A stretch of 64,000 bases of DNA, taken from contig NZ_CP015243.1 in assembly GCF_001648175.1 (NCBI RefSeq), positions 2,976,001-3,040,000 of the forward strand. Direction: 5' to 3'. The translations under genes were made by a program, and so were the position numbers. The stretch's first letter is position 1; every line of letters begins with the position of its first letter. The notes beneath the pieces are model-generated. The model was given only the letters and a program-made list of their open reading frames with translations. It did no database searches and was not told the DNA's origin. The DNA comes from Halotalea alkalilenta. Its GTDB lineage: Bacteria; Pseudomonadota; Gammaproteobacteria; Pseudomonadales; Halomonadaceae. Shown in pieces: positions 9,341 through 58,399 of this stretch.

Positions 9341-9501
9341 AATCTCTAAACTCAAAACAATTTGTGCATGATATGCATATTTATCTCGAAATGGATAACC
9401 AATAAAGTTCCCTCACACCAAACGGCCTTGCAGATCACTCACTCTGCCGTCGGATCTCCAAGCGCCGCGACTCAACCAAACTTTGAAAGGACTTTCCATG
9501 A

Positions 9502-9540
9502 ACCCCCTCCGAGTTCTCCTCGACAGGGGGATGATCAGGG
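9502..9540 (-). other. G/C-rich hairpin in the IS110 right end
   Basis: Just after the transposase stop, a CCCCC run near 9503 can pair with either of two G runs further along, enclosing a GAG/CTC stem. The same structure is in the other two copies, where copy 2 has one G fewer. It may end transposase transcription or take part in end recognition. Confidence 0.4.
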
Positions 9541-9579
9541 GGGAGATTGGGCGGTCGTCATATCGTTCTTCCTCAACTT

Positions 9580-10908
9580 TCAGGCAGAAGCATTTTGAGC
9601 TTCAGTCTGGATAGGCGTCACGGAGAACCCGAGCTGCTTGGCGAGTCGACGCATGGAACGTTGCTTGGTTTCCAGCGCCTGTGCCTCGTAGTACTGGAGT
9701 CCGTGTTCGACATAGTCCAATCCTTTGACCATGACGCGCCAGAACAGCGCCGCGAGTTTGCGCGCCAGGGCGATATTGGCGATCAATCCACCTCGGCGAC
9801 CCGCCATCCGACGGTAAAAACCGCCCAGCGCAATGTGTTTGCTGCGAGCGAGGCTGCGGGCCATGACGCAAAACAGGCGCCCAGCACGATTACGCCTGCG
9901 CTTGGCCGAGCGTTGGCGCTTACCGCTCTGATGACTCCCGGGGGCCAGCCCGGCCCAAGCGGTGAAGTGTTTCTCGGTCGGCCACTGGGTCAGGTCGGTT
10001 CCCACTTCACCTATGAGTTGCAGGACGCTGTAGTCCGTATGGGCGGGAAGCACGGTGAGATCATTGCCTCCACACAGAGCCACCAGCATCGGATGCAGGT
10101 CATCGATCTGGGGTGCATTGGCACCGCCTCGCTTGTGCGCCTTGGACGGCGGCGACGTCGGAGGATCGACGTCGATCGAACGGAGCACCGCTTCGATCTG
10201 TTGGTCGCAAGCCCTGATCAAACGCTGGTAGTGCTCCCAGCTTTCCAGCGCCTGGCGCAACGCGAACAGATGCTCCTCGGCCCAGGTCCCTTGCAGAGAG
10301 GCTTTGATCCGTTCGGCCTTCTGCTGGCGGATCTGCACGTCGCACAAAGCCAGCAGTCGCTCAGGATCGCGTTCACCCTCGAGCATCGACCGGATCACCG
10401 CCATGCCGCTGCGGCCCACCAGGTTGCTGATGACATCGTGCAATTTGATGTTCATCCGCTCCAAGGCCTTCTGCAGATGCTGCACATGCCCTGCGGCCAG
10501 CGTGATGTGGTCCTGGCGCAGTCGCAGGTAATCCTGCAAGCGCCGGATCTCGGCTGGGGGCACGAAGCCTGCCCGCAAGAGTCCGTGCGCGTGCAACGTC
10601 GCTCCCCACTGGCAATCCTTCATATCCGTCTTGCGACCCGGCAGATTGCGGGTGTGCTTACCGTTGACCATCAGCACCTGTAGTTTCGCGGCTTCCAGCA
10701 CGCTGTACAGGGGCAGCCAGTAGATCCCCGTGGCCTCCATGGCCACCGACTTCACCTTCTGCGACAACAGCCAGTCGCGTAGCTCATGCAGCTGTGCCGT
10801 GAACGTGCCGAATACCTTCGGCTCCCCCCCGGCAATCGACACATGCATCTGCTCGCTGCCGACATCCACGAAGGCTGCCAATGGATCCAATACCGGTAAG
10901 TGGGCCAT
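9580..10908 (-). CDS. IS110-family transposase (DEDD recombinase), copy 1
   Basis: A 442-residue transposase. The N-terminal RuvC-like domain has the DEDD residues Asp15 (FVDVGSE), Glu58 (AMEATGIYW), Asp95 and Asp98 (GRKTDMKD). The C-terminal Transposase_20 domain has the conserved AGLAPGSHQSGKR motif, with Ser328 the probable nucleophile. In IS110 elements the two domains form a composite active site directed by a bridge RNA. A good AGGAG site lies before the ATG. The protein is identical to that of copy 2 and differs from copy 3 at His22. The frame is intact, so the element may be active. Confidence 0.95.
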   Translation of the reverse strand: MAHLPVLDPLAAFVDVGSEQMHVSIAGGEPKVFGTFTAQLHELRDWLLSQKVKSVAMEATGIYWLPLYSVLEAAKLQVLMVNGKHTRNLPGRKTDMKDCQWGATLHAHGLLRAGFVPPAEIRRLQDYLRLRQDHITLAAGHVQHLQKALERMNIKLHDVISNLVGRSGMAVIRSMLEGERDPERLLALCDVQIRQQKAERIKASLQGTWAEEHLFALRQALESWEHYQRLIRACDQQIEAVLRSIDVDPPTSPPSKAHKRGGANAPQIDDLHPMLVALCGGNDLTVLPAHTDYSVLQLIGEVGTDLTQWPTEKHFTAWAGLAPGSHQSGKRQRSAKRRRNRAGRLFCVMARSLARSKHIALGGFYRRMAGRRGGLIANIALARKLAALFWRVMVKGLDYVEHGLQYYEAQALETKQRSMRRLAKQLGFSVTPIQTEAQNASA

Positions 10909-11154
10909 CTTATAGCTCCTGGGAACGGGTCGATGGAGAAGGGGTTACCGCAAGCCCGGTCGTGTTCTGGGAAGACAAATCTTTCCAACGGGAAGCCAGG
11001 CTCACCATAATGCGCAGCAGCCCACGACCAGAGCCATTCTCACCACCGGGCACCCGGCACCAAAAGACATGCGGCCACGCTGCTTGCGGCAACACAGCCA
11101 TGCTACTCGGGTTCAAGGTCCATGCGCAGTGCCATCGCGATGGCACAGGAGGCT
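10909..11154 (-). ncRNA. Candidate bridge RNA region of IS110 copy 1
   Basis: The long non-coding end lies upstream of the transposase, the layout of IS110-group elements whose left end encodes a bridge (seek) RNA. It holds a 16-base palindrome (TGCCATCGCGATGGCA) near the outer end, a CCGGG/CCCGG hairpin, and two copies of CTCACCA (plus strand 11001-11007 and 11039-11045). These match the CT-CACCA target next to every copy. They are candidate guide segments. The RNA itself and its limits are inferred, not seen. Confidence 0.55.
11147..11152 (+). promoter_or_regulatory. Shine-Dalgarno site supplied by the IS end
   Basis: AGGAGG, the last bases of the IS before its terminal CT, lies six bases upstream of the ATG at 11159. 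The inserted element therefore gives the displaced gene a perfect ribosome binding site in place of the original AAAGGA, which now lies at 9486-9491. Confidence 0.75.
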
Positions 11155-11158
11155 CACC

Positions 11159-11791
11159 ATGAACATCACTCTGGTTGGCGCAGGCAACATGGGCGCGGGT
11201 TTCGTCAAGCAGCTCACTGCGGCGGGCCACCAAGTGCGGGTGACCGCACGCGACCCAGCCAAGGCCCAGGCCCTGGCCGACACCTATGCGGGTGCCACGG
11301 CTGTAACGCCTGCCGAGGCACTGGGTGACTCGCAAGTCGTCATCGTCGCCACCGGCTATGCCGATGCCGTCCCCGCGCTGAAAGCGCTCGGCTCGCTCGA
11401 AGGCCGCATCGTGATCGACATCACCAATCCGCTGACCGCCGACTTCATGGGCCTGACCCTGGGCTACGACACCTCCGCGGCGGAGGAGATCGCCAAGGCG
11501 CTGCCGGGTGCGAAAGTGGTCAAGGCGTTCAATACCGTACTCGCCCAGGTGCTGGCCGAAGGCCCCGTCTTCTCGGGTGGCCAGAGCGTACCGGTGTTCT
11601 ATGCCGGCGACGACGAGCGCGCCAAGCAGACCGTGCATGCACTGGTGGAAAGCATCGGCTTCCAAGCCGTCGACGCAGGTGGCCTGAACAACGCGCGCTA
11701 CCTGGAGCCGGTCGCGGGCCTGAACATCTACTTCGCCTATGGCGCCGGGCACGGCACGCAGATCGCGCCCACCTGGATCCATCGCGCCTGA
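11159..11791 (+). CDS. NADPH-dependent F420 reductase-like NAD(P)-binding protein
   Basis: A 210-residue Rossmann protein with the motif ITLVGAGNMGAGFVKQL and a segment DITNPLTADFMGLTLGYDTS, then VVKAFNTVLAQVLAEGPV, typical of the NADP oxidoreductase/F420-reductase-like family. In organisms without F420 such proteins are thought to act on quinone or flavin substrates, but the reaction here is unknown. It heads an operon with DoxX, an extradiol dioxygenase and an esterase, a set often controlled by LysR regulators of oxidative or aromatic stress. The start ATG is directly after the IS110 end. Transcription now depends on IS-internal or read-through promoters. Confidence 0.85.
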   Translation: MNITLVGAGNMGAGFVKQLTAAGHQVRVTARDPAKAQALADTYAGATAVTPAEALGDSQVVIVATGYADAVPALKALGSLEGRIVIDITNPLTADFMGLTLGYDTSAAEEIAKALPGAKVVKAFNTVLAQVLAEGPVFSGGQSVPVFYAGDDERAKQTVHALVESIGFQAVDAGGLNNARYLEPVAGLNIYFAYGAGHGTQIAPTWIHRA

Positions 11792-11878
11792 CATCTCTCT
11801 TGCCAATAGCGGGGCTTGAGCCCCGCATTCGCTCGAATGGCCATCACACCTCGACACACATGACGTAAGGAAACCGAC

Positions 11879-12274
11879 ATGAATGCAATCCTCTCACTGC
11901 CAGGCCGCATCGGGCTGTCGCTGATCTTCATCATTTCCGGCTGGGGCAAGCTCATCGGCTACGCCGCCACCCAGCAGTACATGGAAGCCATGGGCGTCCC
12001 CTCCGCACTGCTTCCGCTGGTGATCCTGCTCGAACTAGGCGGCGGACTCGCGATCGCCGCGGGTGCGTTCACACGCTGGATCGCCCTGGTCCTCGCGGCC
12101 TTCTCGGTGCTGACAGCGTTGATCTTCCATGCCGACTTCAGCGACGCAGGCCAGGCGATCAACTTCTGGAAGAACGTGGCAATGGCCGGTGGCTTCCTCC
12201 TCCTGGCCGCCAACGGTGCAGGCGAGTTCAGCGTCGATGAACTGCGCAACCGCCGCAGCGCCAAAGCGTCGTAA
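11879..12274 (+). CDS. DoxX-family inner membrane protein
   Basis: A 131-residue protein with four predicted membrane helices and the family signature GLSLIFIISGWGKLIGY, followed by LLELGGGLAIAAG and INFWKNVAMAGGFLLLAA. DoxX-like proteins are linked to thiosulfate:quinone oxidation in archaea and to redox stress in bacteria, but most have no assigned reaction. The gene has an AAGGA site and lies 87 bases after the F420-reductase-like gene and 58 bases before the dioxygenase, consistent with one operon. Confidence 0.9.
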   Translation: MNAILSLPGRIGLSLIFIISGWGKLIGYAATQQYMEAMGVPSALLPLVILLELGGGLAIAAGAFTRWIALVLAAFSVLTALIFHADFSDAGQAINFWKNVAMAGGFLLLAANGAGEFSVDELRNRRSAKAS

Positions 12275-12295
12275 CACGGAGGATAGGCGCTAAAC

Positions 12296-12315
12296 GCGGG
12301 CGGCATGCCGCCCGC
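12296..12315. repeat. 20-bp perfect palindrome between doxX-like and dioxygenase genes
   Basis: GCGGGCGGCA followed directly by its reverse complement TGCCGCCCGC gives a very stable hairpin without T run. It ends 17 bases before the dioxygenase ATG. It may stabilise or attenuate the mRNA between cistrons. Confidence 0.6.
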
Positions 12316-12332
12316 TCATCCTGGAGAACGCC

Positions 12333-13136
12333 ATGTCTCGCATTCCATCTCTATTCGTCTCCCACGGTTCGCCGATGTTCGCGCTCGAGCCCGGCGTGCT
12401 CGGCCCCAACCTCCAGCGCCTCGGTGCATCGCTGCCGGCGCTCTCGGCGATCCTCGTGCTGTCGCCCCACTGGCAGACGCCGCAGTTGCGCGTCTCCTCG
12501 GTGGCGAATCCACAGACCATCCATGATTTCGGCGGCTTCCCGCAGCCCCTGTACGAGCTCAGCTACGAGCCGCCAGGCGCCGTGCAACTCGCCGGAGACG
12601 TGGTCGAAATGCTCGCCCTTGCGGGTATGCCCGCCACGCTCGACACCCAGCGCGGCCTGGACCACGGCGCCTGGGTGCCGCTGCGATACCTGAAACCCGA
12701 TGCCGATATCCCGGTGCTGCAGGTCTCACTGCCGCGCGACATGGACACCGAGGGCGCGCAGCGCTTGGGCCGGGCCCTGGCGCCGCTACGGGACAGAGGG
12801 GTGCTGATCGTCGGCTCCGGTAGCCTGACCCACAATCTCTACGAGTTCCGCAGCCATATCCGCGATCCCGAATACGCCCAGGAGTTCGCCGACTGGGTCG
12901 CGACGGCGATCACCGAGCACGACGACGAGTCGCTGGTCCACTACCGTGCTCGCGCGCCCCACGCCGCGCGCGCGCATCCCACCGAAGAGCACTACCTACC
13001 GCTTCTGGTCGCGGCGGGCGCGAGCACCACGGACGAACCCCGCAGCCGGATCGAGGGAGGCATGACCTACGGCGTACTGTCGATGGATTCCTTCATCTTC
13101 GGACTCGACACCGACGACACGGAGAAAACGCCATGA
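12333..13136 (+). CDS. Extradiol ring-cleavage dioxygenase, YgiD/4,5-DOPA dioxygenase type
   Basis: A 267-residue class III (LigB-type) dioxygenase. Metal and acid-base histidines are seen in FVSHGSPMFAL (His11), LSPHWQTP, GLDHGAWVPLRYL and AHPTEEHYLPLL. Such enzymes open catechol rings next to the hydroxyl pair; YgiD of E. coli acts on DOPA. The true substrate may be another catechol. A GGAGAA site precedes the ATG. The stop overlaps the start of the esterase gene by four bases, so the two are translated together. Confidence 0.88.
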   Translation: MSRIPSLFVSHGSPMFALEPGVLGPNLQRLGASLPALSAILVLSPHWQTPQLRVSSVANPQTIHDFGGFPQPLYELSYEPPGAVQLAGDVVEMLALAGMPATLDTQRGLDHGAWVPLRYLKPDADIPVLQVSLPRDMDTEGAQRLGRALAPLRDRGVLIVGSGSLTHNLYEFRSHIRDPEYAQEFADWVATAITEHDDESLVHYRARAPHAARAHPTEEHYLPLLVAAGASTTDEPRSRIEGGMTYGVLSMDSFIFGLDTDDTEKTP

Positions 13137-13810
13137 ACGACATCGTCTGGTCAGCGCTGCGCGCCGACTTGTCGCTGCCATTTCGGACGACGACATCCGC
13201 CACTGGGCCGGCGAAGCGGCTTTTGATCCTGCTCCATGGGGTGGGTGGCAACGAAACCAACCTCGCACCGCTCGGGTCCGCGCTGGCGAGCGATACCCGG
13301 GTCATTCTGGCGCGTGGCCCCTTGGTCTTGGGACCGGCCCAACATGCCTGGTTCCAGGTATCGTTCGGCCCGCAGGGCCCGCGCCCAGACCTGGCAGCGG
13401 CGGAGAAAAGCCGCCAGCAGCTGGCGACGTTCATTGCCGAACTGCAGGCGGAGTACTCCGTCGCACCGTACAAGACCGTAGTGGCCGGCTTCAGCCAGGG
13501 CGGCATCATGAGCGCAAGCATCGGATTGACGCGCCCCGAACTGGTCGAAGGCTTCGGCATTCTCTCCGGGCGCATTCTCCCCGAGATCAGACCACAGGTC
13601 GCGGACCGCGCCGCCCTTGGCAAGGTGCAGGGTTTCATCAGCCATGGCCGGGACGATACCAAGCTGGTGGTGGAATGGGCCCACCGAGCCGACGAGATGC
13701 TGACGGAACTGGGCGTCGCGCATGAAACTCGCCTTTACCCGGGCGATCATGGCATTACGCCTGCGATGCAGCAGGACTTCTTCGCCTGGTTCGAACGGCT
13801 GACCCGCTGA
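13133..13810 (+). CDS. Phospholipase/carboxylesterase-family alpha/beta hydrolase
   Basis: A 225-residue serine hydrolase like YpfH/acyl-protein thioesterase-related esterases. The oxyanion segment is LLILLHGVGGNE, the nucleophile elbow GFSQGG, the Asp lies in SHGRDD and the His in GDHGIT. Substrates of this family are short acyl esters. It is coupled to the dioxygenase gene by an ATGA overlap and ends the operon. Dioxygenase, esterase, DoxX and reductase together suggest handling of aromatic or quinone compounds, but that is inference. Confidence 0.87.
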   Translation: MNDIVWSALRADLSLPFRTTTSATGPAKRLLILLHGVGGNETNLAPLGSALASDTRVILARGPLVLGPAQHAWFQVSFGPQGPRPDLAAAEKSRQQLATFIAELQAEYSVAPYKTVVAGFSQGGIMSASIGLTRPELVEGFGILSGRILPEIRPQVADRAALGKVQGFISHGRDDTKLVVEWAHRADEMLTELGVAHETRLYPGDHGITPAMQQDFFAWFERLTR

Positions 13811-14553
13811 TCCGCCGCGCCAGAGGGTCGGCGCGGCCTATCACTGGTGAAGGCGCTACTCCTTGAGTGGGAATCCACCGAGGAGCAGCCTGCGCTTCCT
13901 TCCTATCCAGAAGCGCCGACATGAACACGACGCGAGTGCCGTCGACGCTCTCCCTGGCGGCGACCACCTCGGCCAACAGTGGGCCGAGCCCCGCCGCCAC
14001 GCTCCAGCTGGAGCTGACTTCGTCAGCGGTACCAGCCAGGGGTGAGTCGACGCCTACCTCGGCATCCCCTATGCAACCCCGCCCGTCGACCCCAACCGAT
14101 GGCGAAGGCTTCGGCCCCTACACAGCTCACCAACCTGGAAACTTTTCAGAAGCGCCGGCCACATGATTTCATCGCGCAGGCGGATGCACTGGATGCAGCA
14201 CTGACTGCGGCTCAACCATAAGCGCTCACAGCAGCCCATGCCCGGCGATCGTCGGCAGCCATTGCAGGTAAATGGTCAGGTGCGTGCTGGCGATCATGCG
14301 TGAAGTTCGCGATCACCCCCCATAGTCGAGATACGAGCACTCGAGGTGCGGATTGGTCGCTGATTTATCCAGGGGAACCTGCCATTTCAGCGAAGATACG
14401 AGATGAACGCTCACCGACATGGAGCGACGCTTCCATCCACTGGCTTGGTTTCATTACGCATCAATGGATCGAGCGGGAGACTTACGACCAGGTCCAGTAA
14501 GTGAAGGGTAATGTACCTTGGCTTACTTTTAGGCAGTCTCTGGATCGTGGAAC
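13811..14553 (+). pseudogene. Decayed region with a type-B carboxylesterase N-terminal remnant
   Basis: No intact gene is seen. About 14009-14150 can be read as ADFVSGTSQG, stop, then VDAYLGIPYATPPVDPNRW, which matches the conserved N-terminus of type-B carboxylesterases (GIPYA.PPV...RW). The stop and loss of the rest show it is dead. On the minus strand near 14227-14297 a short tail reads THLTIYLQWLPTIAGHGLL, like the end of a membrane protein. From about 14300 to 14553 I see nothing further. Confidence 0.55.
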
Positions 14554-14629
<76 letters not shown>

Positions 14630-14727
14630 TTTTTTTGGTGGGAACCGGCCCCTTGGGGCGAAACGCGGGCAACACTATAACGTGGAGAAACAAGCTTGTA
14701 TAGCGCTTGCCGGCTTCACCATAATTA

Positions 14728-14743
14728 GACTAAAGTATTAGTC
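14728..14743. promoter_or_regulatory. Inverted repeat, candidate MarR operator
   Basis: GACTAA-AGTA-TTAGTC is a perfect 6-bp inverted repeat 22 bases upstream of the MarR-family start, followed by a third related half-site TTAGT at 14746-14750. MarR proteins commonly bind such AT-containing palindromes over their own promoter. Confidence 0.6.
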
Positions 14744-14765
14744 GATTAGTAAGGATTCCGAACAT

Positions 14766-15257
14766 ATGGACTTGGGCGACTCCCTCGAGCTCCTGGACAG
14801 CTATCTCTGGCGTCATTGGCGCCGCAATTTCAAGCACAACGAGGTGGAGCAATTCACTTTCGCTGAGGCGGACTACCTGCGCTGCATCGCCAATCTGGGC
14901 AGCAGTCGGCTCACCGACATCGCTCATCTACTGGGCGTGTCGAAATCGTCGGCCAGTGAAATGCTCGGCAAGCTCGCTGATCGCGGTTGGGTGGAGGTCG
15001 AGCCCTGCGAGCTGGATTCCCGCTCGCGCCTTTACTCGCTCAGCGACAAGGGGGATGCGATCAAGCAGGAGTGCTTGCGCTGCTATGACCTGATGGTCGA
15101 GCGCCTGAGTGAAAGTCTCCCGCCGGAGGAGTTCGGCGAGCTCAACGAACTCCTCGCGCGAGCCACCGAGATCATTTGGCAGAGCACCGACCGGCGCTCA
15201 TCGCGGCCAGCTCTCCCGCAGCTCGTGAACGCCCACCCGGCTCAATCGCCGAGATAA
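14766..15257 (+). CDS. MarR-family transcriptional regulator
   Basis: A 163-residue winged-helix protein. The core is FTFAEADYLRCIANLGSSRLTDIAHLL, recognition region VSKSSASEMLGKLADRGWVEVEP and the wing DSRSRLYSLSDKG, as in MarR regulators. The C-terminus has a dimer helix and a short polar tail. No effector can be assigned. The gene is convergent with a secreted small protein, overlapping it by 16 bases. An inverted repeat upstream suggests autoregulation. Confidence 0.87.
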   Translation: MDLGDSLELLDSYLWRHWRRNFKHNEVEQFTFAEADYLRCIANLGSSRLTDIAHLLGVSKSSASEMLGKLADRGWVEVEPCELDSRSRLYSLSDKGDAIKQECLRCYDLMVERLSESLPPEEFGELNELLARATEIIWQSTDRRSSRPALPQLVNAHPAQSPR

Positions 15258-15601
15258 CGATGATATTCGTCCATGTAGCCGTTGAGTCGATCTGTATCGG
15301 CCTGGAGCTTGGCCAACCGCGGATCGTTGGCCGGCAAGCCGCGCTGGGCATCGCGCATGCCCTGGTTGAGCCGGTCGCTCTCGTCGAGGACGATGGCGTA
15401 GGCCTGTTCGAAGGAGCGGCACTGGGGGGTGGATTCACCGCTGTCGCCCGCGAGCGAGTCAACGCAAGGCTCGCCTAGTTGGTTGGCGGTATCGACGACG
15501 AACTGCATCGAGGAGAAGTATTCGTCGATCAGCTGGTCGGCAAAGGCGGGGGTGGCGAGGCAGACGGAAAAAGTAGCGGCAAAGGCCAAACGCTTGTACA
15601 T
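15242..15601 (-). CDS. Small secreted/periplasmic protein of unknown function
   Basis: A 119-residue protein with a classic signal peptide (MYKRLAFAATFSVCLATPAFA, cut before DQ). The mature part of about 98 residues is acidic, helical and holds two Cys (EPCVDSL and PQCRSFEQ), which could form a disulfide in the periplasm. I do not recognise the family. The codon use and the signal peptide support a real gene. Its end overlaps the end of the MarR gene. Confidence 0.7.
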   Translation of the reverse strand: MYKRLAFAATFSVCLATPAFADQLIDEYFSSMQFVVDTANQLGEPCVDSLAGDSGESTPQCRSFEQAYAIVLDESDRLNQGMRDAQRGLPANDPRLAKLQADTDRLNGYMDEYHRYLGD

Positions 15602-15742
15602 GCGAGTTTCTCTTGGATGGCGCGCCCGGGCGAATATGGCCCGAGTTTCAGGTCGAGACGAAGGATCGAACATCGTTCGACCCCCCGGGTTCGGTCCATT
15701 CCAAGCTACCACGCGGGCGTGGATGCCGGCTACGGTCGCGAC

Positions 15743-16297: not shown

Positions 16298-16326
16298 CCG
16301 AACCTCCACAAAAACAATTTCCCTTG

Positions 16327-16364: not shown

Positions 16365-16402
16365 CATGGGTTCACCCATCCAGGTTCACCCACGCCTCTC
16401 GT

Positions 16403-26474: not shown

Positions 26475-26559
26475 TTCCATGAACCCCCTCCGAGTTCTCC
26501 TCGACAGGGGGATGATCAGGGGGAGATTGGGCGGTCGTCATATCGTTCTTCCTCAACTT

Positions 26560-27888
26560 TCAGGCAGAAGCATTTTGAGCTTCAGTCTGGATAGGCGTCA
26601 CGGAGAACCCGAGCTGCTTGGCGAGTCGACGCATGGAACGTTGCTTGGTTTCCAGCGCCTGTGCCTCGTAGTACTGGAGTCCGTGTTCGACATAGTCCAA
26701 TCCTTTGACCATGACGCGCCAGAACAGCGCCGCGAGTTTGCGCGCCAGGGCGATATTGGCGATCAATCCACCTCGGCGACCCGCCATCCGACGGTAAAAA
26801 CCGCCCAGCGCAATGTGTTTGCTGCGAGCGAGGCTGCGGGCCATGACGCAAAACAGGCGCCCAGCACGATTACGCCTGCGCTTGGCCGAGCGTTGGCGCT
26901 TACCGCTCTGATGACTCCCGGGGGCCAGCCCGGCCCAAGCGGTGAAGTGTTTCTCGGTCGGCCACTGGGTCAGGTCGGTTCCCACTTCACCTATGAGTTG
27001 CAGGACGCTGTAGTCCGTATGGGCGGGAAGCACGGTGAGATCATTGCCTCCACACAGAGCCACCAGCATCGGATGCAGGTCATCGATCTGGGGTGCATTG
27101 GCACCGCCTCGCTTGTGCGCCTTGGACGGCGGCGACGTCGGAGGATCGACGTCGATCGAACGGAGCACCGCTTCGATCTGTTGGTCGCAAGCCCTGATCA
27201 AACGCTGGTAGTGCTCCCAGCTTTCCAGCGCCTGGCGCAACGCGAACAGATGCTCCTCGGCCCAGGTCCCTTGCAGAGAGGCTTTGATCCGTTCGGCCTT
27301 CTGCTGGCGGATCTGCACGTCGCACAAAGCCAGCAGTCGCTCAGGATCGCGTTCACCCTCGAGCATCGACCGGATCACCGCCATGCCGCTGCGGCCCACC
27401 AGGTTGCTGATGACATCGTGCAATTTGATGTTCATCCGCTCCAAGGCCTTCTGCAGATGCTGCACATGCCCTGCGGCCAGCGTGATGTGGTCCTGGCGCA
27501 GTCGCAGGTAATCCTGCAAGCGCCGGATCTCGGCTGGGGGCACGAAGCCTGCCCGCAAGAGTCCGTGCGCGTGCAACGTCGCTCCCCACTGGCAATCCTT
27601 CATATCCGTCTTGCGACCCGGCAGATTGCGGGTGTGCTTACCGTTGACCATCAGCACCTGTAGTTTCGCGGCTTCCAGCACGCTGTACAGGGGCAGCCAG
27701 TAGATCCCCGTGGCCTCCATGGCCACCGACTTCACCTTCTGCGACAACAGCCAGTCGCGTAGCTCATGCAGCTGTGCCGTGAACGTGCCGAATACCTTCG
27801 GCTCCCCCCCGGCAATCGACACATGCATCTGCTCGCTGCCGACATCCACGAAGGCTGCCAATGGATCCAATACCGGTAAGTGGGCCAT
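26560..27888 (-). CDS. IS110-family transposase (DEDD recombinase), copy 2
   Basis: The protein is identical over all 442 residues to that of copy 1, with Asp15, Glu58, Asp95, Asp98 and Ser328 all present. Identity at the DNA level in the coding part points to very recent transposition. No frameshift or stop. Confidence 0.95.
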   Translation of the reverse strand: MAHLPVLDPLAAFVDVGSEQMHVSIAGGEPKVFGTFTAQLHELRDWLLSQKVKSVAMEATGIYWLPLYSVLEAAKLQVLMVNGKHTRNLPGRKTDMKDCQWGATLHAHGLLRAGFVPPAEIRRLQDYLRLRQDHITLAAGHVQHLQKALERMNIKLHDVISNLVGRSGMAVIRSMLEGERDPERLLALCDVQIRQQKAERIKASLQGTWAEEHLFALRQALESWEHYQRLIRACDQQIEAVLRSIDVDPPTSPPSKAHKRGGANAPQIDDLHPMLVALCGGNDLTVLPAHTDYSVLQLIGEVGTDLTQWPTEKHFTAWAGLAPGSHQSGKRQRSAKRRRNRAGRLFCVMARSLARSKHIALGGFYRRMAGRRGGLIANIALARKLAALFWRVMVKGLDYVEHGLQYYEAQALETKQRSMRRLAKQLGFSVTPIQTEAQNASA

Positions 27889-28134
27889 CTTATAGCTCCT
27901 GGGAACGGGTCGATGGAGAAGGGGTTACCGCAAGCCCGGTCGTGTTCTGGGAAGACAAATCTTTCCAACGGGAAGCCAGGCTCACCATAATGCGCAGCAG
28001 CCCACGACCAGAGCCATTCTCACCACCGGGCACCCGGCACCAAAAGACATGCGGCCACGCTGCTTGCGGCAACACAGCCATGCTACTCGGGTTCAAGGTC
28101 CATGCGCAGTGCCATCGCGATGGCACAGGAGGCT
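27889..28134 (-). ncRNA. Candidate bridge RNA region of IS110 copy 2
   Basis: Same 246-base non-coding left end as copy 1, with the two CTCACCA words at plus-strand 27981-27987 and 28019-28025 and the same 16-base palindrome near the outer end. The adjoining target is CT-CACCACGAAC. Confidence 0.55.
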
Positions 28135-28745
28135 CACCACGAACGGCCTGGGGGTGGCTCATTCCTCGCCGGCTCACCACGAACGGCCTGGGTGGCTCGT
28201 TCCTCGCCGGCTATCCGAGCATCCCGAGTAAGCGAAGCGCATCGAAGGGCGCGAATGAGGTTTTCCGGATCCAGGGCTCGGCAACCACACCTACCCGTTC
28301 GTCCCGAGCGGCGTTCCTACTCACCGAGGTGCCGGCTCATCGCGACAGTTGGGAACGCCAGTCGAGGGATCGAGCGGCAGCGCCAAGGCCGTGGTTCGAC
28401 TCGGCTCGTTCCTCGCCGGCTCACCACGAACGGCCTGGGGGTGGCTCATTCCTCGCCGGCTCACCACGAACGGCCTGGGTGGCTCATTCCTCGCCGGCTA
28501 TCCGAGCATCCCGAGTAAGCGAAGCGCATCGAAGGGCGCGAATGAGGTTTTCCGGATCCAGGGTTCGGCAACCACACCTACCCGTTCGTCCCGAGCGGCG
28601 TTCCTACTCACCGAGGTGCCGGCTCATCGCGACAGTCGGGAACGCCAGTCGAGGGATCGAGCGGCAGCGCCAAGGCCGTGGTTCGAGACGAGATGTTCTC
28701 CGAGCGCCCTGAGCGAGCGCAGCGAATCGAAGGACACGAACGCCA
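28135..28745 (+). repeat. Mosaic repeat block with a 287-bp tandem duplication
   Basis: Unit 1 starts at 28135 and unit 2 at 28422; the units differ at only a few bases. Each holds two CACCACGAACGGCCTGGG words, GCCGGCTATCCGAGCATCCC, CGTCCCGAGCGGCGTTCCTA, GAACGCCAGTCGAGGGATCG and GCCGTGGTTCGA. The same words, rearranged, make the repeats at 36581, 41176, 56651 and 58400. The block is in a gene-free stretch. Frames read across it encode no credible protein. Confidence 0.92.
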
Positions 28746-51118: not shown

Positions 51119-51151
51119 GCAGCCCCCCGAGCCCAGTTCCAAGAGCCAGCC

Positions 51152-51847: not shown

Positions 51848-51896
51848 CGGGTGGCGCCGGGAACGCTCTTTCGTCCGCGATACTGTCAGGCGAAGC

Positions 51897-51923
51897 TAAA
51901 GTTAACTCCCCAATGGCCGATGA
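51897..51923 (+). promoter_or_regulatory. Sigma28 (FliA) promoter of flgMN
   Basis: TAAAGTTA, 11 bases, GCCGATGA, at exact spacing; two mismatches to the full consensus. It lies about 85 bases upstream of flgM and allows FlgM to be made under FliA control, independent of flgA, a feedback known in enteric bacteria. Confidence 0.88.
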
Positions 51924-52007
51924 AGCTGTTCGTGTTATGGGGACGAGGCGACGGGCAGCATGTACCGGCACGCCCATTCCAAGACAGCATTCTCAGGAGT
52001 AAAGCGC

Positions 52008-52280
52008 GTGAAAATCGACCCGCGTCAAGGGCTGCGGCCTTCGACGGCACCCACCGAGATCGGTGTGCATCGCCCGCCCACGTCAGCCTCGGATGCCGAG
52101 CGCGCCGAAGGCGTCACCGCCCTGCACCATGCGGGCACGGTGCAGGACACAACCCAGGACGTCGACGTCCAGCGGGTCAACGAGCTACGCCAGCTGATCA
52201 GCGAGGGGCAGTTCGAGATCGATACCGATCGCATCGCCGACGGCCTGATCACCGACGTGCGCAGCTTCGTTCAAGAGTGA
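52008..52280 (+). CDS. flgM: Anti-sigma28 factor FlgM
   Basis: A 90-residue protein starting at GTG 52008 behind an AGGAG site. N-terminus VKIDPRQGLRPSTAPTEI (first residue Met in the protein) is disordered and exported; the C-terminal helices DVDVQRVNELRQLISEGQFEIDTDRIADGLI bind FliA. It holds FliA inactive until the hook is complete. Nine bases before flgN. Confidence 0.94.
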   Translation: MKIDPRQGLRPSTAPTEIGVHRPPTSASDAERAEGVTALHHAGTVQDTTQDVDVQRVNELRQLISEGQFEIDTDRIADGLITDVRSFVQE

Positions 52281-52288
52281 CCGCTGAG

Positions 52289-52765
52289 ATGGACAACGAC
52301 ATCGACGCGCTCTCGGCGCTGCTCACTGCGCAGGAGACGGACCTGCGGGCGCTCAATGCACTGCTGGAGGAGGAGCGCGCCGGACTTCCCTCCCTCTCGG
52401 CCACCCCGCTCGAGCACTTCGAACGACTACGAGAAGCCAAGGTGCACCAACTGGCCAAGCTCGAACGAAACGAGCAGGCACGACGGGCGCTGCTACGCAG
52501 CCAGGGCTATCCGCACGGTGATCGCACCGATACCGACGCCTGCGTGGCACTCTTCGGCCTCGAGCCCCAGTGGCGGCGCCTGCTCGCCGAACTCGAACGC
52601 GCGCGCCGCCTTAACGCCCAGCTCGCGGGGCTGGTCGAGGAGCTATCCGACTTCAACGCCCACCGCCTGGCCTGGGCGCAACGCCAGCACGGCGAATCGC
52701 TCTACGATGCCCACGGCCGCCGCTCGACGATGCCGCCGCCGAATAGCGGGGAGCCGAATAGATAA
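52289..52765 (+). CDS. flgN: Flagellar export chaperone FlgN
   Basis: A 158-residue helical chaperone for FlgK and FlgL. Segments are LLTAQETDLRALNALLEEERAGL and VEELSDFNAHRLAWAQRQHGESLYDAHGR, as in the family. Position after flgM is standard. Confidence 0.92.
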   Translation: MDNDIDALSALLTAQETDLRALNALLEEERAGLPSLSATPLEHFERLREAKVHQLAKLERNEQARRALLRSQGYPHGDRTDTDACVALFGLEPQWRRLLAELERARRLNAQLAGLVEELSDFNAHRLAWAQRQHGESLYDAHGRRSTMPPPNSGEPNR

Positions 52766-52840
52766 TCCCGGCCGGCCCGCGCTTGGCTCGAGGCGCCTTC
52801 GCGCTCCCGGGCTCGCCGAAGATAGGCGCGGGCTGCGCAG

Positions 52841-53266
52841 CTAGGAATCGGGGTGATACTCCACCGTCAGCGACAGCTCACCGCTCGCCGCCATGCTCGC
52901 CCTCCTCCCTCCCGCCTTTGCGGCCTGCCTCTGCAGCTCGAAGTAAAAACCCGCGCCGGCCGGCAGGCCGGCGAAAGCGACGCTGGCGCCGCTCGACGAG
53001 GGTAGCGTGACGCAGCGGCTTCGCTGGCACAGCCTGGCGAGCACTGGAACTTCCCCGTAGTCCACCCGCCAGCGCATGCGAGTGACGCGCCCCTTCGCCC
53101 CTTCGCCCAATACCGGGCTGCGCGCGGTGGCGCCAGGTGCTCCGAGCATGGGAGCTGCGAGCTGGGTCGACCAGCTCGCGCCCGCCGCGAACGAGCCCGG
53201 AGACAGCGCCATCGACACCGTCGCCAGGAAGATGGCGCCCAGCCACCCGCCGCCCCTACTGGCCAC
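52841..53266 (-). CDS. flhE: Flagellar protein FlhE
   Basis: A 141-residue secreted protein beginning at GTG 53266 inside the end of flhA. A signal peptide (LGAIFLATVSMALSPGSFA) leads to a small domain with GASWSTQLAAPMLGAPGATARSPVL, two Cys in RLCQRSRCVTLP and FAGLPAGAGFYFELQ. FlhE is thought to plug the export gate and limit proton leak; it occurs mainly in peritrichously flagellated gammaproteobacteria. Confidence 0.82.
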   Translation of the reverse strand: MASRGGGWLGAIFLATVSMALSPGSFAAGASWSTQLAAPMLGAPGATARSPVLGEGAKGRVTRMRWRVDYGEVPVLARLCQRSRCVTLPSSSGASVAFAGLPAGAGFYFELQRQAAKAGGRRASMAASGELSLTVEYHPDS

Positions 53267-55331
53267 CAACGAATACCTCGACCTTGAGCGTGCGGTCATC
53301 GGGAATCTCTGCCTGGGACATCACCACCAGCCGCTCGAGACGTCGCCGCAGGAAACGCGATAGCAGCGGCCGAAGCGGGTGCGCCACCACCATCACCGGC
53401 GCCAACCCGCGTCCCTCTTGATGGTCGATCGCCGCCTGGGCCTGCGCGAGCAACACATCGGCAAGCCCCGGCTCGAGGCCACCTCCGTTGTTGAGTGCCT
53501 GCCCCAGCAGTTTCTCGAGCCCGAACTCGAGACCTATGACCTCGAGAGTGCTGGAAGCGCCGAACCACTGCTGGGTAATGGCGCGGCCCAGTGCGATTCG
53601 CACCAGGGCGTTGAGTTCGAACGGATCGGTGGTAGTGGATGCATGCTCGGCCAGGGTCGCAAGGATGGTGCGCATGTCGCGGATCGGCACCTCCTCGGCG
53701 AGCAGCAGTTGGAGGACCCGGTTGATCACGCCGACGCCGAGCGGCTGCGGTACCACTTCATCGACCAGCGGTTTCGCCGACTCTCCCACCCTGTCGAGCA
53801 GCTGCTGGGTCTCCTGACGACCCAGCAGTTCGCTGGCATGTCGACCGAGCAGATGGTTGAGATGGGTGGCGATCACCGTGCTGGCATCCACCACGGTGTA
53901 GCCAAGCACCTGCGCGCGATCGCGCAGCTCGGCGGAGATCCACACCGCCTCGAGGCCGAAGGCCGGCTCTCGCGTCGGCCGCCCTTCGAGCGAACCGCTG
54001 ACACCGCCGGGATCGATGGCCAGGAAGCTGCCAGGCCAGGCCTCGCCCGTGCCGATCTCGACCCCGTTCAGCGTGATCCGATAGCCCTGCGGCGCGAGGC
54101 CAAGGTCGTCGCGAATATGGACGACCGGGGGAAGAAAGCCCAAGTCCTGGGCGAACTTCTTACGCACACCCTTGATCCGCCCGAGGAGTTCACCGCCCTG
54201 GCTCCGATCGACCAGCGGAATCAATCTATAGCCTACCTCGAGACCCAAGGGATCGATCAGCGCGACGTCCTCCCAGCTGGCATCGAGCGTCTGGTCGTCT
54301 TCAGGCCGCGCCACGGGCTCTGCCTGCTCAGGCGCCTCGGGGCGGCGCATCAGGTACCAGCCGAGACCACCTAGCATCGCGGTGAAGAAAAGGAACACCA
54401 GGTTGGGCATGCCCGGCACCATGCCCAGCAGCCCGAGCACGCCGGCGGAGAGCAGCAGCACCCGCGGATTGGTGAACAGTTGCCCGATCAGCTGGCTGCC
54501 GACGTCCTGCTCGGTACGCACACGGGATACCGTCACCCCGGCGGCGGTGGAGATCACCAGCGCGGGGATCTGGGCGACCAGACCGTCGCCGATGGTCAAA
54601 AGCGTGTAGGCGTGGGCTGCGTCGGAGACCGACATGCCGTGCTGGCCAACGCCGACGATCAGCCCACCGACGATGTTGACCACCATGATCAGGATGCCGG
54701 CGATCGCATCGCCGCGAACGAACTTGCTCGCACCGTCCATCGAACCGAAGAAATCAGCTTCCTGGGTGACCTCCGCGCGCCGAGCGCGAGCGGTCTTTTC
54801 ATCGATCAAGCCGGCATTGAGGTCAGCGTCGATCGCCATCTGCTTGCCCGGCATCGCATCGAGGATGAAACGCGCGCCGACTTCGGCGATACGTCCCGCC
54901 CCCTTGGTGATGACCATGAAGTTGATCAGCACCAGGATGACGAAGACCACCAGGCCGACGGCGAAGTTGCCACCGACGAGAAAGTCGGCGAATGCCTCGA
55001 TCACCCGCCCCGCGGCATCGCTACCCTCATGGCCGTGCATCAGGATCACCCGGGTGGAAGCGACGTTGAGCGACAGCCTGAGCAAGGTGGTGAACAGCAG
55101 TACCGCCGGGAAGGCGGCGAAATCGAGCGGCCGAGTGGTGAACATGGCGACCAGCAGCACCATGATCGACAGCGCGATGTTGAAGGTGAACAGCAAATCC
55201 AGCGCGACGGGAGGCAGCGGCAGCACCATCATCGCCAGGATGAGGATGATCAGCACCGGGCCGGCGAGAATCTTGAGCGAAGCGCCGGAGGCGAAGCCGC
55301 GTTCTCTGGATAGGGTAGCGAGGGGCTTCAT
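53256..55331 (-). CDS. flhA: Flagellar export gate protein FlhA
   Basis: A 691-residue gate protein. Eight membrane helices occupy about residues 20-315, with the proton-channel loop AEVGARFILDAMPGKQMAIDADLNAG (FHIPEP signature region) and the cytoplasmic ring domain from about 350 (YRLIPLVDRSQGGELLGRI, to KVEVFVGGQ). Overlaps flhB by four bases and flhE at its end. Confidence 0.97.
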   Translation of the reverse strand: MKPLATLSRERGFASGASLKILAGPVLIILILAMMVLPLPPVALDLLFTFNIALSIMVLLVAMFTTRPLDFAAFPAVLLFTTLLRLSLNVASTRVILMHGHEGSDAAGRVIEAFADFLVGGNFAVGLVVFVILVLINFMVITKGAGRIAEVGARFILDAMPGKQMAIDADLNAGLIDEKTARARRAEVTQEADFFGSMDGASKFVRGDAIAGILIMVVNIVGGLIVGVGQHGMSVSDAAHAYTLLTIGDGLVAQIPALVISTAAGVTVSRVRTEQDVGSQLIGQLFTNPRVLLLSAGVLGLLGMVPGMPNLVFLFFTAMLGGLGWYLMRRPEAPEQAEPVARPEDDQTLDASWEDVALIDPLGLEVGYRLIPLVDRSQGGELLGRIKGVRKKFAQDLGFLPPVVHIRDDLGLAPQGYRITLNGVEIGTGEAWPGSFLAIDPGGVSGSLEGRPTREPAFGLEAVWISAELRDRAQVLGYTVVDASTVIATHLNHLLGRHASELLGRQETQQLLDRVGESAKPLVDEVVPQPLGVGVINRVLQLLLAEEVPIRDMRTILATLAEHASTTTDPFELNALVRIALGRAITQQWFGASSTLEVIGLEFGLEKLLGQALNNGGGLEPGLADVLLAQAQAAIDHQEGRGLAPVMVVAHPLRPLLSRFLRRRLERLVVMSQAEIPDDRTLKVEVFVGGQ

Positions 55332-56488
55332 CGGTCAGCGCTTCCTGGCATGGAGGGGTCGGGGTCGACGCTGAGCGCCGGGGGAATGGGCAGGTCGACG
55401 GGGGCCGTGGGAGGCGCCTCGCCCTCGCGCGCGGCGAGCGCCAGCCGGTGGACCCAGGCCAGCACCTCGGCCACCGCGGCATAGAGCCCAGCGGGAATTT
55501 CACGCTCCAGGTCGCAATGACGATAGAGCGCACGCGCCAGCGGCGGCGCCTCGAGCAGCGGCACTCGATGCTCCCCCGCCACCGCCCGGATCCTGGCCGC
55601 GATCTCGTCGGCCCCCTTGGCCACCAGCCGGGGAGCCGCCATGCCCGCTTCGTAGCGCAGCGCCACCGCATAGTGGCTGGGGTTGGTGATCACCACGCTG
55701 GCCTTGGGTACCTCGCTCATCATCCGCCGCCCCGCGACCGCCTGCTGCTGCTGGCGAATCCGCGCCTTTAGATGGGGATCGCCCTCGCTTTCCTTATGTT
55801 CGCGGCGTATCTCATCGCGGCTCATGCGCAGCTTGCGATGATGGCTGAAGAGCTGATACGGAACGTCGATCAGCACGACGATGATGAACGCGAGCAGGAT
55901 CAGCACCGAACACATCGCGACCAGCCCCAACGCATCCGCGATCGCCGAGCCGATCGACTGCTGCGCCAACCCGAGCAGCGCCTGGCGTTGATAGCCGATG
56001 AACAACCAAGCGACACAGGCGATAAGAACCGTCTTCGCCACCGCCTTGGCGAGCTCGGCGAGCGCCTGGTGGGAGAAGATGCGCTTGAACCCCTTGAGCG
56101 GGTTGAGCCGCTTGGGATCGGGAGAGAGCGACTTGGCCGACATCAACCAGCCGCCCAGAGCCAGCGGCGCGATGAGCGCCGCGATCGCCAACGCCCCCAA
56201 GACCGGCGCCAGCGCCAATCCGGCCTGGATCAGCAGCCCCCCGACGTGCCGCATGGCAAGGGAAGGGTCGAAGACCAACGCATGGTCGAAGCGCAATCCC
56301 TCAGTGACCGCCACCCCCATACGATCGAACATCCACGGGGCGAGAAACCACATCGAAGCGACGCCAGTGACCAGCACCATGAAAGTGGAGAGCTCGCGGG
56401 AACGGGCAATCTGGCCATCCTCGCGCGCCTTGTCGAGCCGCCTTGGAGTGGCCTGTTCGGTCTTTTCCTGATCGTTCTCTTCCGCCAT
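55328..56488 (-). CDS. flhB: Flagellar export gate protein FlhB
   Basis: A 386-residue export switch. N-terminal part begins AEENDQEKTEQATPRRLDKAREDGQIARSREL; four membrane helices follow; the cytoplasmic tail has the self-cleavage site as NPSH (VVITNPSHYAVALRY), where most FlhB proteins have NPTH. Asn-Pro, the scissile pair, is kept. The ATG at 56488 gives the family start. Interacts with FliK for hook length. Confidence 0.96.
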   Translation of the reverse strand: MAEENDQEKTEQATPRRLDKAREDGQIARSRELSTFMVLVTGVASMWFLAPWMFDRMGVAVTEGLRFDHALVFDPSLAMRHVGGLLIQAGLALAPVLGALAIAALIAPLALGGWLMSAKSLSPDPKRLNPLKGFKRIFSHQALAELAKAVAKTVLIACVAWLFIGYQRQALLGLAQQSIGSAIADALGLVAMCSVLILLAFIIVVLIDVPYQLFSHHRKLRMSRDEIRREHKESEGDPHLKARIRQQQQAVAGRRMMSEVPKASVVITNPSHYAVALRYEAGMAAPRLVAKGADEIAARIRAVAGEHRVPLLEAPPLARALYRHCDLEREIPAGLYAAVAEVLAWVHRLALAAREGEAPPTAPVDLPIPPALSVDPDPSMPGSADR

Positions 56489-56650
56489 CGAATGCTGCCG
56501 CTTCGCGCAGCGCCGCGCGCGCCGCCTCTTTTCGATCCTGCGATCATAGAAGCAGCGAGAACGCACGCATTGGCCGAACAAAACACCCAACGATGGGCTA
56601 TTCGAGCGATAGGGCCTCACACCCACCCGAGCGAGAACGGATAATTCCCA

Positions 56651-56738
56651 CCCCTTCGCCCCGAGGGTGGGCAACGAGCATCGAGGGATCGGACGGCGGC
56701 GCCGAGGCCGTGGTTCGAGACGCTCGTTCCTCGCTCCT
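56651..56738 (+). repeat. Mosaic repeat fragment left of IS110 copy 3
   Basis: It contains GAGGCCGTGGTTCGAGACGC followed by TCGTTCCTCGCTCCT, which matches 58585-58619 exactly and so shows the left half of an intact target. The last two bases are the CT core. Confidence 0.87.
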
Positions 56739-56824
56739 TTCCATGAACCCCCTCCGAGTTCTCCTCGACAGGGGGATGATCAGGGGGGAGATTGGGCGGT
56801 CGTCATATCGTTCTTCCTCAACTT

Positions 56825-58153
56825 TCAGGCAGAAGCATTTTGAGCTTCAGTCTGGATAGGCGTCACGGAGAACCCGAGCTGCTTGGCGAGTCGACGCATG
56901 GAACGTTGTTTGGTTTCCAGCGCCTGTGCCTCGTAGTACTGGAGTCCGTGTTCGACATAGTCCAATCCTTTGACCATGACGCGCCAGAACAGCGCCGCGA
57001 GTTTGCGCGCCAGGGCGATATTGGCGATCAATCCACCTCGGCGACCCGCCATCCGACGGTAAAAACCGCCCAGCGCAATGTGTTTGCTGCGGGCGAGGCT
57101 GCGGGCCATGACGCAAAACAGGCGCCCAGCACGATTACGCCTGCGCTTGGCCGAGCGTTGGCGCTTACCGCTCTGATGACTCCCGGGGGCCAGCCCGGCC
57201 CAAGCGGTGAAGTGTTTCTCGGTCGGCCACTGGGTCAGGTCGGTTCCCACTTCACCTATGAGTTGCAGGACGCTGTAGTCCGTATGGGCGGGAAGCACGG
57301 TGAGATCATTGCCTCCACACAGAGCCACCAGCATCGGATGCAGGTCATCGATCTGGGGTGCATTGGCACCGCCTCGCTTGTGCGCCTTGGACGGCGGCGA
57401 CGTCGGAGGATCGACGTCGATCGAACGGAGCACCGCTTCGATCTGTTGGTCGCAAGCCCTGATCAAACGCTGGTAGTGCTCCCAGCTTTCCAGCGCCTGG
57501 CGCAACGCGAACAGATGCTCCTCGGCCCAGGTCCCTTGCAGAGAGGCTTTGATCCGTTCGGCCTTCTGCTGGCGGATCTGCACGTCGCACAAAGCCAGCA
57601 GTCGCTCAGGATCGCGTTCACCCTCGAGCATCGACCGGATCACCGCCATGCCGCTGCGGCCCACCAGGTTGCTGATGACATCGTGCAATTTGATGTTCAT
57701 CCGCTCCAAGGCCTTCTGCAGATGCTGCACATGCCCTGCGGCCAGCGTGATGTGGTCCTGACGCAATCGCAGGTAATCCTGCAAGCGCCGGATCTCGGCT
57801 GGGGGCACGAAGCCTGCCCGCAAGAGTCCGTGCGCGTGCAACGTCGCTCCCCACTGGCAATCCTTCATATCCGTCTTGCGACCCGGCAGATTGCGGGTGT
57901 GCTTACCGTTGACCATCAGCACCTGTAGCTTCGCGGCTTCCAGCACGCTGTACAGAGGCAGCCAGTAGATCCCCGTGGCCTCCATGGCCACCGACTTCAC
58001 CTTCTGCGACAACAGCCAGTCACGTAGCTCATGCAGCTGTGCCGTGAACGTGCCGAAGACCTTCGGCTCCCCCCCGGCAATCGACACATACATCTGCTCG
58101 CTGCCGACATCCACGAAGGCTGCCAATGGATCCAATACCGGTAAGTGGGCCAT
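56825..58153 (-). CDS. IS110-family transposase (DEDD recombinase), copy 3
   Basis: 442 residues, intact, with Tyr instead of His at residue 22 and several silent changes. All DEDD residues and Ser328 are kept, so it should still be active. Confidence 0.94.
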   Translation of the reverse strand: MAHLPVLDPLAAFVDVGSEQMYVSIAGGEPKVFGTFTAQLHELRDWLLSQKVKSVAMEATGIYWLPLYSVLEAAKLQVLMVNGKHTRNLPGRKTDMKDCQWGATLHAHGLLRAGFVPPAEIRRLQDYLRLRQDHITLAAGHVQHLQKALERMNIKLHDVISNLVGRSGMAVIRSMLEGERDPERLLALCDVQIRQQKAERIKASLQGTWAEEHLFALRQALESWEHYQRLIRACDQQIEAVLRSIDVDPPTSPPSKAHKRGGANAPQIDDLHPMLVALCGGNDLTVLPAHTDYSVLQLIGEVGTDLTQWPTEKHFTAWAGLAPGSHQSGKRQRSAKRRRNRAGRLFCVMARSLARSKHIALGGFYRRMAGRRGGLIANIALARKLAALFWRVMVKGLDYVEHGLQYYEAQALETKQRSMRRLAKQLGFSVTPIQTEAQNASA

Positions 58154-58399
58154 CTCATAGCTCCTGGGAACGGGTCGATGGAGAAAGGGTTACCGCAAGC
58201 CCGGTCGTGTTCTGGGAAGACAAATCTTTCCAACGGGAAGCCAGGCTCACCATAATGCGCAGCAGCCCACGACCAGAGCCATTCTCACCACCGGGCACCC
58301 GGCACCAAAAGACATGCGGCCACGCTGCTTGCGGCAACACAGCCATGCTACTCGGGTTCAAGGTCCATGCGCAGTGCCATCGCGATGGCACAGGAGGCT
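58154..58399 (-). ncRNA. Candidate bridge RNA region of IS110 copy 3
   Basis: The 246-base left end again carries CTCACCA at plus-strand 58246-58252 and 58284-58290 and the outer 16-base palindrome. These parts are unchanged although the coding part has diverged, which fits selection on an RNA. Confidence 0.55.

What the first reader, a model, noticed from the sequence alone, without database searches (positions are those of the whole stretch)
9494..58399. Three IS110 elements with surviving empty sites show a shared guide-like target CT-CACCAYGAAC
The 1.66-kb elements at 9494-11154, 26475-28134 and 56739-58399 abut CT-CACCATGAAC, CT-CACCACGAAC and CT-CACCACGAAC. Intact junctions at 28415-28431 and 58611-58632 show the state before insertion, so the ends (TTCCATG... 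to ...GGAGGCT) and a 2-base CT core are seen directly. Bases left of the core differ among the sites (GGA, CGG, TCC), so specificity lies mainly on one side. IS110-family elements are known to recombine at a short core using a bridge RNA. Two targets are in a dispersed repeat, like known IS110 elements that enter REP sequences.
Basis: partly seen in the sequence, partly recalled or inferred. Interest (0 to 1): 0.75.

Follow-up and report, generated by a model that had tools for sequence, protein, structure and literature searches.

The report
Jumping gene with one-sided RNA guide
Twenty copies of a bacterial jumping gene sit at one short DNA word that matches a guide in their own predicted RNA; unlike the studied relatives, this RNA seems to read only one side of the landing site.

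Summary
The genome carries 20 intact copies of the element, not three. Read along the transposase, the landing site is GTTCRTGGTG-AG with varied bases to the right; 18 of 20 copies fit exactly, and 70 empty sites remain, 47 of them in local arrays. The protein is an IS110 bridge recombinase. An RNA predicted upstream of its gene carries a left target guide (TGGTGAG) and a left donor guide (TGGAAAG). Across relatives both guides change with their own sites: target guide 0 of 2000 permutations, donor guide 2 of 5000. No guide for the right side was found: right flanks show no clear covariation, and in this element the covarying fold leaves no free bases where that guide would lie. So this is a bridge-RNA element with an apparently one-sided target loop, a new variant of a known kind. 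Caveats: no RNA was observed; GTTC in the target is not explained by the guide; the only orthologous empty site examined is two bases longer than expected.

The parts
9494..11154 (-). IS110-type element, copy 1 (1661 bp; transposase direction is minus)
   Evidence: 20 copies in genome, 99-100% identical
26475..28134 (-). copy 2 (1660 bp)
56739..58399 (-). copy 3 (1661 bp)
9580..10908 (-). transposase of copy 1, 442 aa, DEDD + Transposase_20; also 26560-27888 and 56825-58153
10944..11093 (-). core of the predicted bridge RNA in the left end (outer helix to outer helix)
11039..11046 (-). left target guide, GTGGTGAG read on the minus strand (copies 2, 3: 28019-28026, 58284-58291)
   Evidence: changes with the left target across relatives
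10981..10988 (-). left donor guide, TTGGAAAG on the minus strand; its last seven bases match right end TGGAAAG
11023..11034 (-). 5' strand of helix P2
10954..10964 (-). 3' strand of helix P2, abutting the outer helix (3' strand 10944-10955) with no free bases between
11010..11017 (-). 5' strand of donor loop (CTGCGCAT), same sequence as left-end segment 11122-11129
   Evidence: inflated by shared descent
11122..11129 (-). left-end segment CTGCGCAT, just outside the subterminal repeat
11109..11118 (-). left subterminal inverted repeat (CCTTGAACCC)
   Evidence: 32 of 34 left/right rows differ by at most one base in nine
9496..9505 (-). right subterminal inverted repeat (GGGTTCATGG)
11129..11146 (.). 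palindrome 6 bases from the core at the left end (GTGCCATCGCGATGGCAC)
   Evidence: read; similar dyads visible in many but not all relatives, energy not unusual
11153..11164 (-). core AG and left target of copy 1 (CT-CACCATGAAC on plus)
28133..28144 (-). core and left target of copy 2
58398..58409 (-). core and left target of copy 3
28173..28184 (-). unoccupied target in repeat
28420..28431 (-). unoccupied target in next 287-bp repeat unit
28460..28471 (-). unoccupied target in repeat
58617..58628 (-). unoccupied target in repeat

Best explanation
These are active-looking copies of an IS110-family bridge-RNA element. Shown: 20 copies with whole transposase genes and identical guides sit at GTTCRTGGTG-AG (one at its own right end, one with GCTC); AG stands at both ends of each; the left target guide and left donor guide change with target and right end in relatives. 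Inferred: the left end is transcribed; the RNA binds the transposase; its left guide pairs with the bottom strand over five bases plus the AG core; its donor loop pairs with the right end next to the subterminal repeat; strands are exchanged at AG. The target loop lacks a right target guide, so the right half-site is free, and it encloses the donor loop instead of lying beside it. Abundant, probably neutral repeats supply most of the targets.
For: 20 of 20 copies have a whole transposase and both guides. In 18 distinct sites left positions -10 to -1 and the core are invariant or nearly so, apart from R at -6, while +1 shows all four bases. 88 GTTCRTGGTGAG sites, 0 with the pattern reversed. 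Adjacent empty repeat units. Left guide against left flank: mean 4.90 of 6 non-core matches against 2.97 permuted, 0 of 2000, 39 rows, 21 guides. All-columns scan over 23 elements: LT-4, -3, -2 against the guide rank first to third, LT-1 and LT-5 high, donor guide next; no right-target diagonal among the 45 strongest signals. Right-target run tests 250 of 3000 (borderline) and 879 of 3000. Seven copies of FR_27 element A, one guide, have unrelated right flanks. Helix P2: 7 of 7 pairs change on both sides; outer helix 0 of 1000 permutations. In L096, 31% identical, counting AG once rejoins an ABC-ATPase reading frame. E58, D95, D98, S328 invariant and D15 in at least 90% of 23 aligned proteins; fold.
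Against: No transcript or RNA-protein complex was seen. GTTC, beyond the guide, is kept in 18 of 19 non-self targets and the guide does not explain it; GTTC sites look over-used (18 of 88 against 1 of about 67, p 0.0003, scaled from a 400-kb sample with crude gene calling). The orthologous empty site of copy 1 reads GTTCATGGTG-AA-AGTCC, two bases longer. Rfam has no matching family. Relatives are not independent, so permutation counts are inflated by shared descent. In one search the left boundaries were taken from the best guide match, so its left-target signal is not independent. Isolated right-target signals (RT+5, z 3.3; RT+2, z 3.2) stand in that list without forming a diagonal. By the ungapped measure some relatives have up to about five unpaired bases between P2 and the outer helix, so a very short right guide is not excluded. 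The native RNA alone folds no better than shuffles.
Confidence: 0.73

Rival explanations
1. An ordinary two-sided bridge RNA as in IS621, whose right target guide is only core plus about two bases and pairs loosely; the fold drawn here hides it.
For: In IS621 the right guide is only 4 bases with the core (passages of PMC11208160). The RNA has GGGCT just 3' of P2 in this element, which could pair with AG-CCC; 6 of 18 distinct sites have AG-CC, one of them the dimer junction. The 3' run test is borderline (250 of 3000), and some relatives have a few unpaired bases there.
Against: GGCT is absent in several relatives (GGGCCAGG, GGGCACGG), and GGC is paired in the RNAalifold helix. Right flanks differ among copies of one element. 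No right-target diagonal.
Confidence: 0.22
2. The transposase itself reads DNA resembling its subterminal repeat (GTTCATGG); the target is an end-mimic and the RNA only fine-tunes the two bases beside the core.
For: Target GTTCRTGG-TG-AG equals own right end GTTCATGG-AA-AG except two bases and R. Elements with TGG in the guide (this one, FR_27 A and B, L141) tend to have GTTC-like targets. GTTC sites over-used.
Against: Many relatives insert at sites with no GTTCATGG, for example GTCGTGAG, TGTAGGAG, ATCCTGAG, ACGAAAG, each matching its guide.
Confidence: 0.12
3. The copies were spread by recombination and duplication of repeat arrays rather than by guided insertion.
For: L015 and L016 are identical copies in neighbouring units.
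Against: 18 distinct site contexts; neighbouring pairs L001/L010 and L004/L008 differ by 9 and 6 bases; one copy lies at a gene start.
Confidence: 0.03

Closest known systems
IS621 (IS110 group; bridge RNA, REP target, Escherichia coli)
   Different: Only 19% identity in the structural alignment; predicted RNA nested instead of tandem; donor guide 3' instead of 5' of the donor stem-loop; no right target guide found; core AG in this reading, CT in IS621; nine-base subterminal repeat
ISCro4 bridge recombinase (PDB 9t56)
   Different: 20% identity; shorter protein (341 residues in the chain sequence); its RNA was not compared here
ISPpu9 and ISPpu10 (IS110 family in Pseudomonas putida REP sequences)
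   Same: All copies in REP sequences, 2-bp direct repeats (passages of PMC1525189)
   Different: Conserved target spans almost the whole REP there; here it lies on one side of the core
ISEc21 and the IS1111 group with seekRNAs
   Same: Non-coding RNA reads the target; IS1111 elements have subterminal repeats (PMC11187229, sections 12 and 13 read; passages)
   Different: Their RNAs match both target strands; in IS1111 the RNA region is usually downstream of the gene

Membership tests
IS110 family (DEDD RNA-guided recombinase) | DEDD RuvC-like domain plus Transposase_20 domain with catalytic serine | tested here: met
   Pfam and NCBIfam NF033542 above cut-off; E58, D95, D98, S328 invariant, D15 at least 90% in 23 proteins; fold match. 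That these are the catalytic residues follows IS621 (passages of PMC11208158), by alignment.
IS110 family (DEDD RNA-guided recombinase) | short core shared by target and element ends | tested here: met
   AG at both ends of 20 copies, once in empty repeat units and in L096; the orthologous site of copy 1 does not fit simply
IS110 group (IS621-like) | long left end with the RNA upstream of the gene | tested here: met
   246-base left end holding both guides, 86-base right end
IS110 group (IS621-like) | subterminal repeat of only 2-3 bp | tested here: not met
   nine-base repeat with at most one mismatch in 32 of 34 rows; rows include related copies
IS1111 group | RNA in the right end, downstream of the gene | tested here: not met
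   guides lie upstream
IS1111 group | subterminal inverted repeats of 7-17 bp | tested here: met
   but the left repeat lies 28-36 bases from the core
bridge RNA as defined in IS621 | left target guide and left donor guide | tested here: met
bridge RNA as defined in IS621 | right target guide pairing with the right top strand | tested here: not met
   no right-target diagonal, run tests 250 and 879 of 3000, no free bases in this element's fold; a 2-base guide could escape
bridge RNA as defined in IS621 | right donor guide pairing with the right donor top strand | tested here: inconclusive
   no such diagonal; instead a same-sense match of the donor loop's 5' strand to the left end
bridge RNA as defined in IS621 | transcript bound by the recombinase | not testable with these tools
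   needs RNA sequencing of the purified complex

The most novel reading that the evidence does not exclude
A broad branch of IS110 elements uses half-guided bridge RNAs: a left guide of five bases plus core, no right target guide, and a donor loop nested inside the target loop whose two strands match the two element ends next to the subterminal repeats. Such loose targeting lets elements drift to end-mimic targets, up to two elements that insert into each other's right ends, as in the A-B-A-B array of a Verrucomicrobia genome.
Probability: 0.48. Interest if true: 0.72.

Novelty: new variant of a known kind. Interest (0 to 1): 0.56.

Why it matters
In the bridge RNAs and seekRNAs described in the papers seen here both target strands are read, and one-sided target logos have been put down to wrongly drawn element ends (PMC11187229, section 13). 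Here empty repeat units fix the ends, so one-sided targeting can be tested directly. If real, it shows a simpler guide design with relaxed specificity, useful for understanding how these recombinases evolve and for engineering them. The genome itself offers a natural assay: 18 filled and 70 empty sites of one word.

Tried and rejected
Folding the native left end alone gave no signal (z 0.24); only the alignment did. The second TGGTGAG in the RNA (11001-11007) was considered as guide and rejected: relatives with other targets keep the same scaffold. GCCC:GGGC as the stem closing the target loop was first assumed; RNAalifold instead extends P2 into GGC, and its pair 22-114 covaries. A DNA hairpin at the left end is visible in many relatives but its energy is not unusual (mean z -0.5 over 22). 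Class search: 1 of 369 genomes, the window's own, matched at E 1e-110; family search: 6 of 275, own included, at 1e-60, so the nearest full-length relatives lie elsewhere (at most 80 loci listed). The joined right-left end was not found in plasmids. Literature: in the held library listed no report of a target loop without right guide; of the two Nature papers I saw passages and one section, of the seekRNA paper two sections and passages; figures and supplements were not seen. Rows left out: one search used 39 of 42 rows (3 lacked the left flank); in 4 of the 39 (L145, two L171, L169) the best match lay away from the usual boundary. One search used 23 of 24 listed elements, with the boundary set by hand for L145, L171 and L169. 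One search lost 4 rows to a pattern that was too strict and compares 19 distinct pairs. Three of 35 rows break the donor-guide match. One search is an automatic look at 41 distant relatives in which many rows fail; it is used only as a hint. Failed scripts were redone: 11 as 12, 37 as 38, 54 as 55.
Full report
What is there. The window lies in a 4.39-Mb single-contig genome. The host is probably a Halotalea: element fragments of 97-100% identity lie in H. alkalilenta contigs, and a genome of the same genus is 94% identical at one locus. The three elements are at the stated places; their transposase genes are on the minus strand, so below everything is read in that direction. The genome holds 20 copies of 1660-1661 bases, all with a whole 442-codon transposase gene; the 18 of 1661 bases differ by 0 to 13 bases. 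There is also one short relic.

Target. All 20 copies have AG at both ends. Left of it, 18 read exactly GTTCRTGGTG; L013 has GCTCGTGGTG; L017 sits in the right end of L012, a head-to-tail dimer. In 18 distinct sites, positions -5, -4, -3 and the core are invariant, -2 and -1 deviate only in the self-insertion, and +1 is G 7, C 9, T 1, A 1. Fifteen of the 18 have one of three recurring right flanks (GAGC, CCGG, CG[C/T]C), as expected of repeats. The word occurs 88 times in the genome and never with the pattern reversed. Eighteen of these are filled and 70 empty; 47 of 70 empty and 9 of 18 filled sites have another such site within 300 bases once element copies are taken out. Of GTTCGTGGTGAG sites 15 of 79 are filled, of GTTCATGGTGAG 3 of 9, no difference (p 0.38). 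In five arrays filled and empty units stand side by side, with spacings of 34, 149, about 202-207 and 249 bases, and share only AG. In the window the repeats have periods of 38-40 and 287 bases.

A caution on the core. The flanks of copy 1 are in none of the repeat families found in the window. Its site in a congener is empty and lies in matching sequence, but reads GTTCATGGTG-AA-AGTCC, two bases more than the rejoined window flanks. This is either an indel between the species, an excision scar, or a sign that end joining is less exact than the repeats suggest. Against the last: in L096, a relative of 31% identity in Mesorhizobium, counting AG once rejoins an ABC-ATPase frame through its conserved motifs.

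Guides. The left end before the transposase is 246 bases. Relatives of about 58-76% identity in Verrucomicrobia, Chlorobi and several Proteobacteria share two blocks there: an eight-base variable word ending AG after GCCCG or a near form, and CCCG[T/C]TGGNNAG. The first matches each element's own left flank: mean 4.90 of 6 non-core positions against 2.97 when guides are permuted, 0 of 2000 (39 rows, 21 guides). The second equals the right end over seven bases in 32 of 35 rows; 2 of 5000 permutations of 10 distinct pairs reach the observed match. A scan of DNA columns against RNA columns over 23 elements puts LT-4, -3, -2 against the guide on top, with LT-1 and LT-5 high and the donor guide among the strong signals; it stops at five bases plus core. 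Its left boundaries were taken from the guide matches, so it maps the pairing but is no independent proof of it. Position -6, where the target is G or A, faces a G in the guide, which could pair with either through a G-T wobble.

No right target guide found. No right-target diagonal is among the 45 strongest signals of that scan; two isolated right-target columns are. Run tests give 250 of 3000 for the 3' part (borderline) and 879 of 3000 for the whole. Copies of one element with one RNA have unrelated right flanks, here and in seven copies of FR_27 element A. The fold offers a reason. A helix P2 follows the guide; all 7 of its tested pairs change on both sides, and the structure exceeds all 500 shuffles and every slid version. 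RNAalifold extends it to the GGC that follows. An outer helix is supported by 0 of 1000 permutations; in this element and several relatives its 3' strand begins at once after P2, in others after up to about five bases by the ungapped measure. So in this element the 3' side of the target loop has no free bases. The donor guide lies inside P2, 3' of a stem-loop, so the donor loop is nested within the target loop. In IS621 the order is stem, left guide, stem-loop, right guide for each of two loops in a row (passages of PMC11208158).

A third match. The 5' strand of the donor loop (CTGCGCAT here) repeats, in the same sense, a left-end segment just outside the subterminal repeat, and both change together (0 of 5000, 19 pairs; diagonal). 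Shared descent inflates this. [quoted passage not shown] I leave it open.

What remains unexplained. GTTC is beyond the guide yet nearly invariant. Most targets are repeats that contain it, but copy 1, outside the window's repeats, has it too. In a 400-kb sample, 6 TGGTGAG sites fell outside crude gene calls and lacked GTTC, about 67 per genome with L013, of which 1 is filled, against 18 of 88 with GTTC (p 0.0003). All 11 GTTC sites of that sample fell inside crude gene calls, which shows how poor the calling is in repeats, so this is only suggestive. The target differs from the element's own right end by little more than two bases; end mimicry may matter.

Known or new. Membership in the IS110 family is clear, and REP targeting with 2-bp repeats is old knowledge (PMC1525189, passages). 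New, as far as searches of the held library show, is the apparent lack of a right target guide together with the nested fold and a nine-base subterminal repeat in an element whose RNA lies upstream. I therefore call it a new variant of a known kind.

Noticed in passing
L173:930-7417 (Verrucomicrobia MAG FR_27): Two related elements in an A-B-A-B head-to-tail array: A's guide (GTGGAGAG) fits B's right end and B's guide (GTGGGAAG) fits A's right end, so each inserts into the other. The last B ends GGGAAG instead of GGAGAG.
   Followed up: partly
window 11148-11161: Copy 1 sits between the ribosome-binding site and the ATG of an F420-oxidoreductase-like gene; the element's own end (GGAGG, 11148-11152) stands where GAAAGGA stood, so the gene may still be translated.
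   Followed up: no
G000:C1:3122641-3125962 (L012, L017): Head-to-tail dimer made by insertion into the element's own right end; similar head-to-tail pairs in Caballeronia (L171) and Chlorobiaceae (L147, L161).
   Followed up: partly
L021 (G000:C1:4268653-4268696): Relic in which a left end is joined almost directly to a right end of a sister element, leaving 11-base subterminal arms around 4 bases.
   Followed up: no
G000:C1:894851-896550, 1665031-1665760, 3142555-3144082: Tandem arrays of about 180-202 base units, each with the target word; of their 24 listed sites one is filled.
   Followed up: partly
window 11010-11017 and 11122-11129: Same eight bases in the donor loop and at the left end, changing together in relatives; role unknown.
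   Followed up: partly
L056, L057 (Bacteroidota relatives, 42% identity): Guides CATTGAG and TTGCGAG match left flanks that look like repeats, so the same design may target repeats in another phylum.
   Followed up: no
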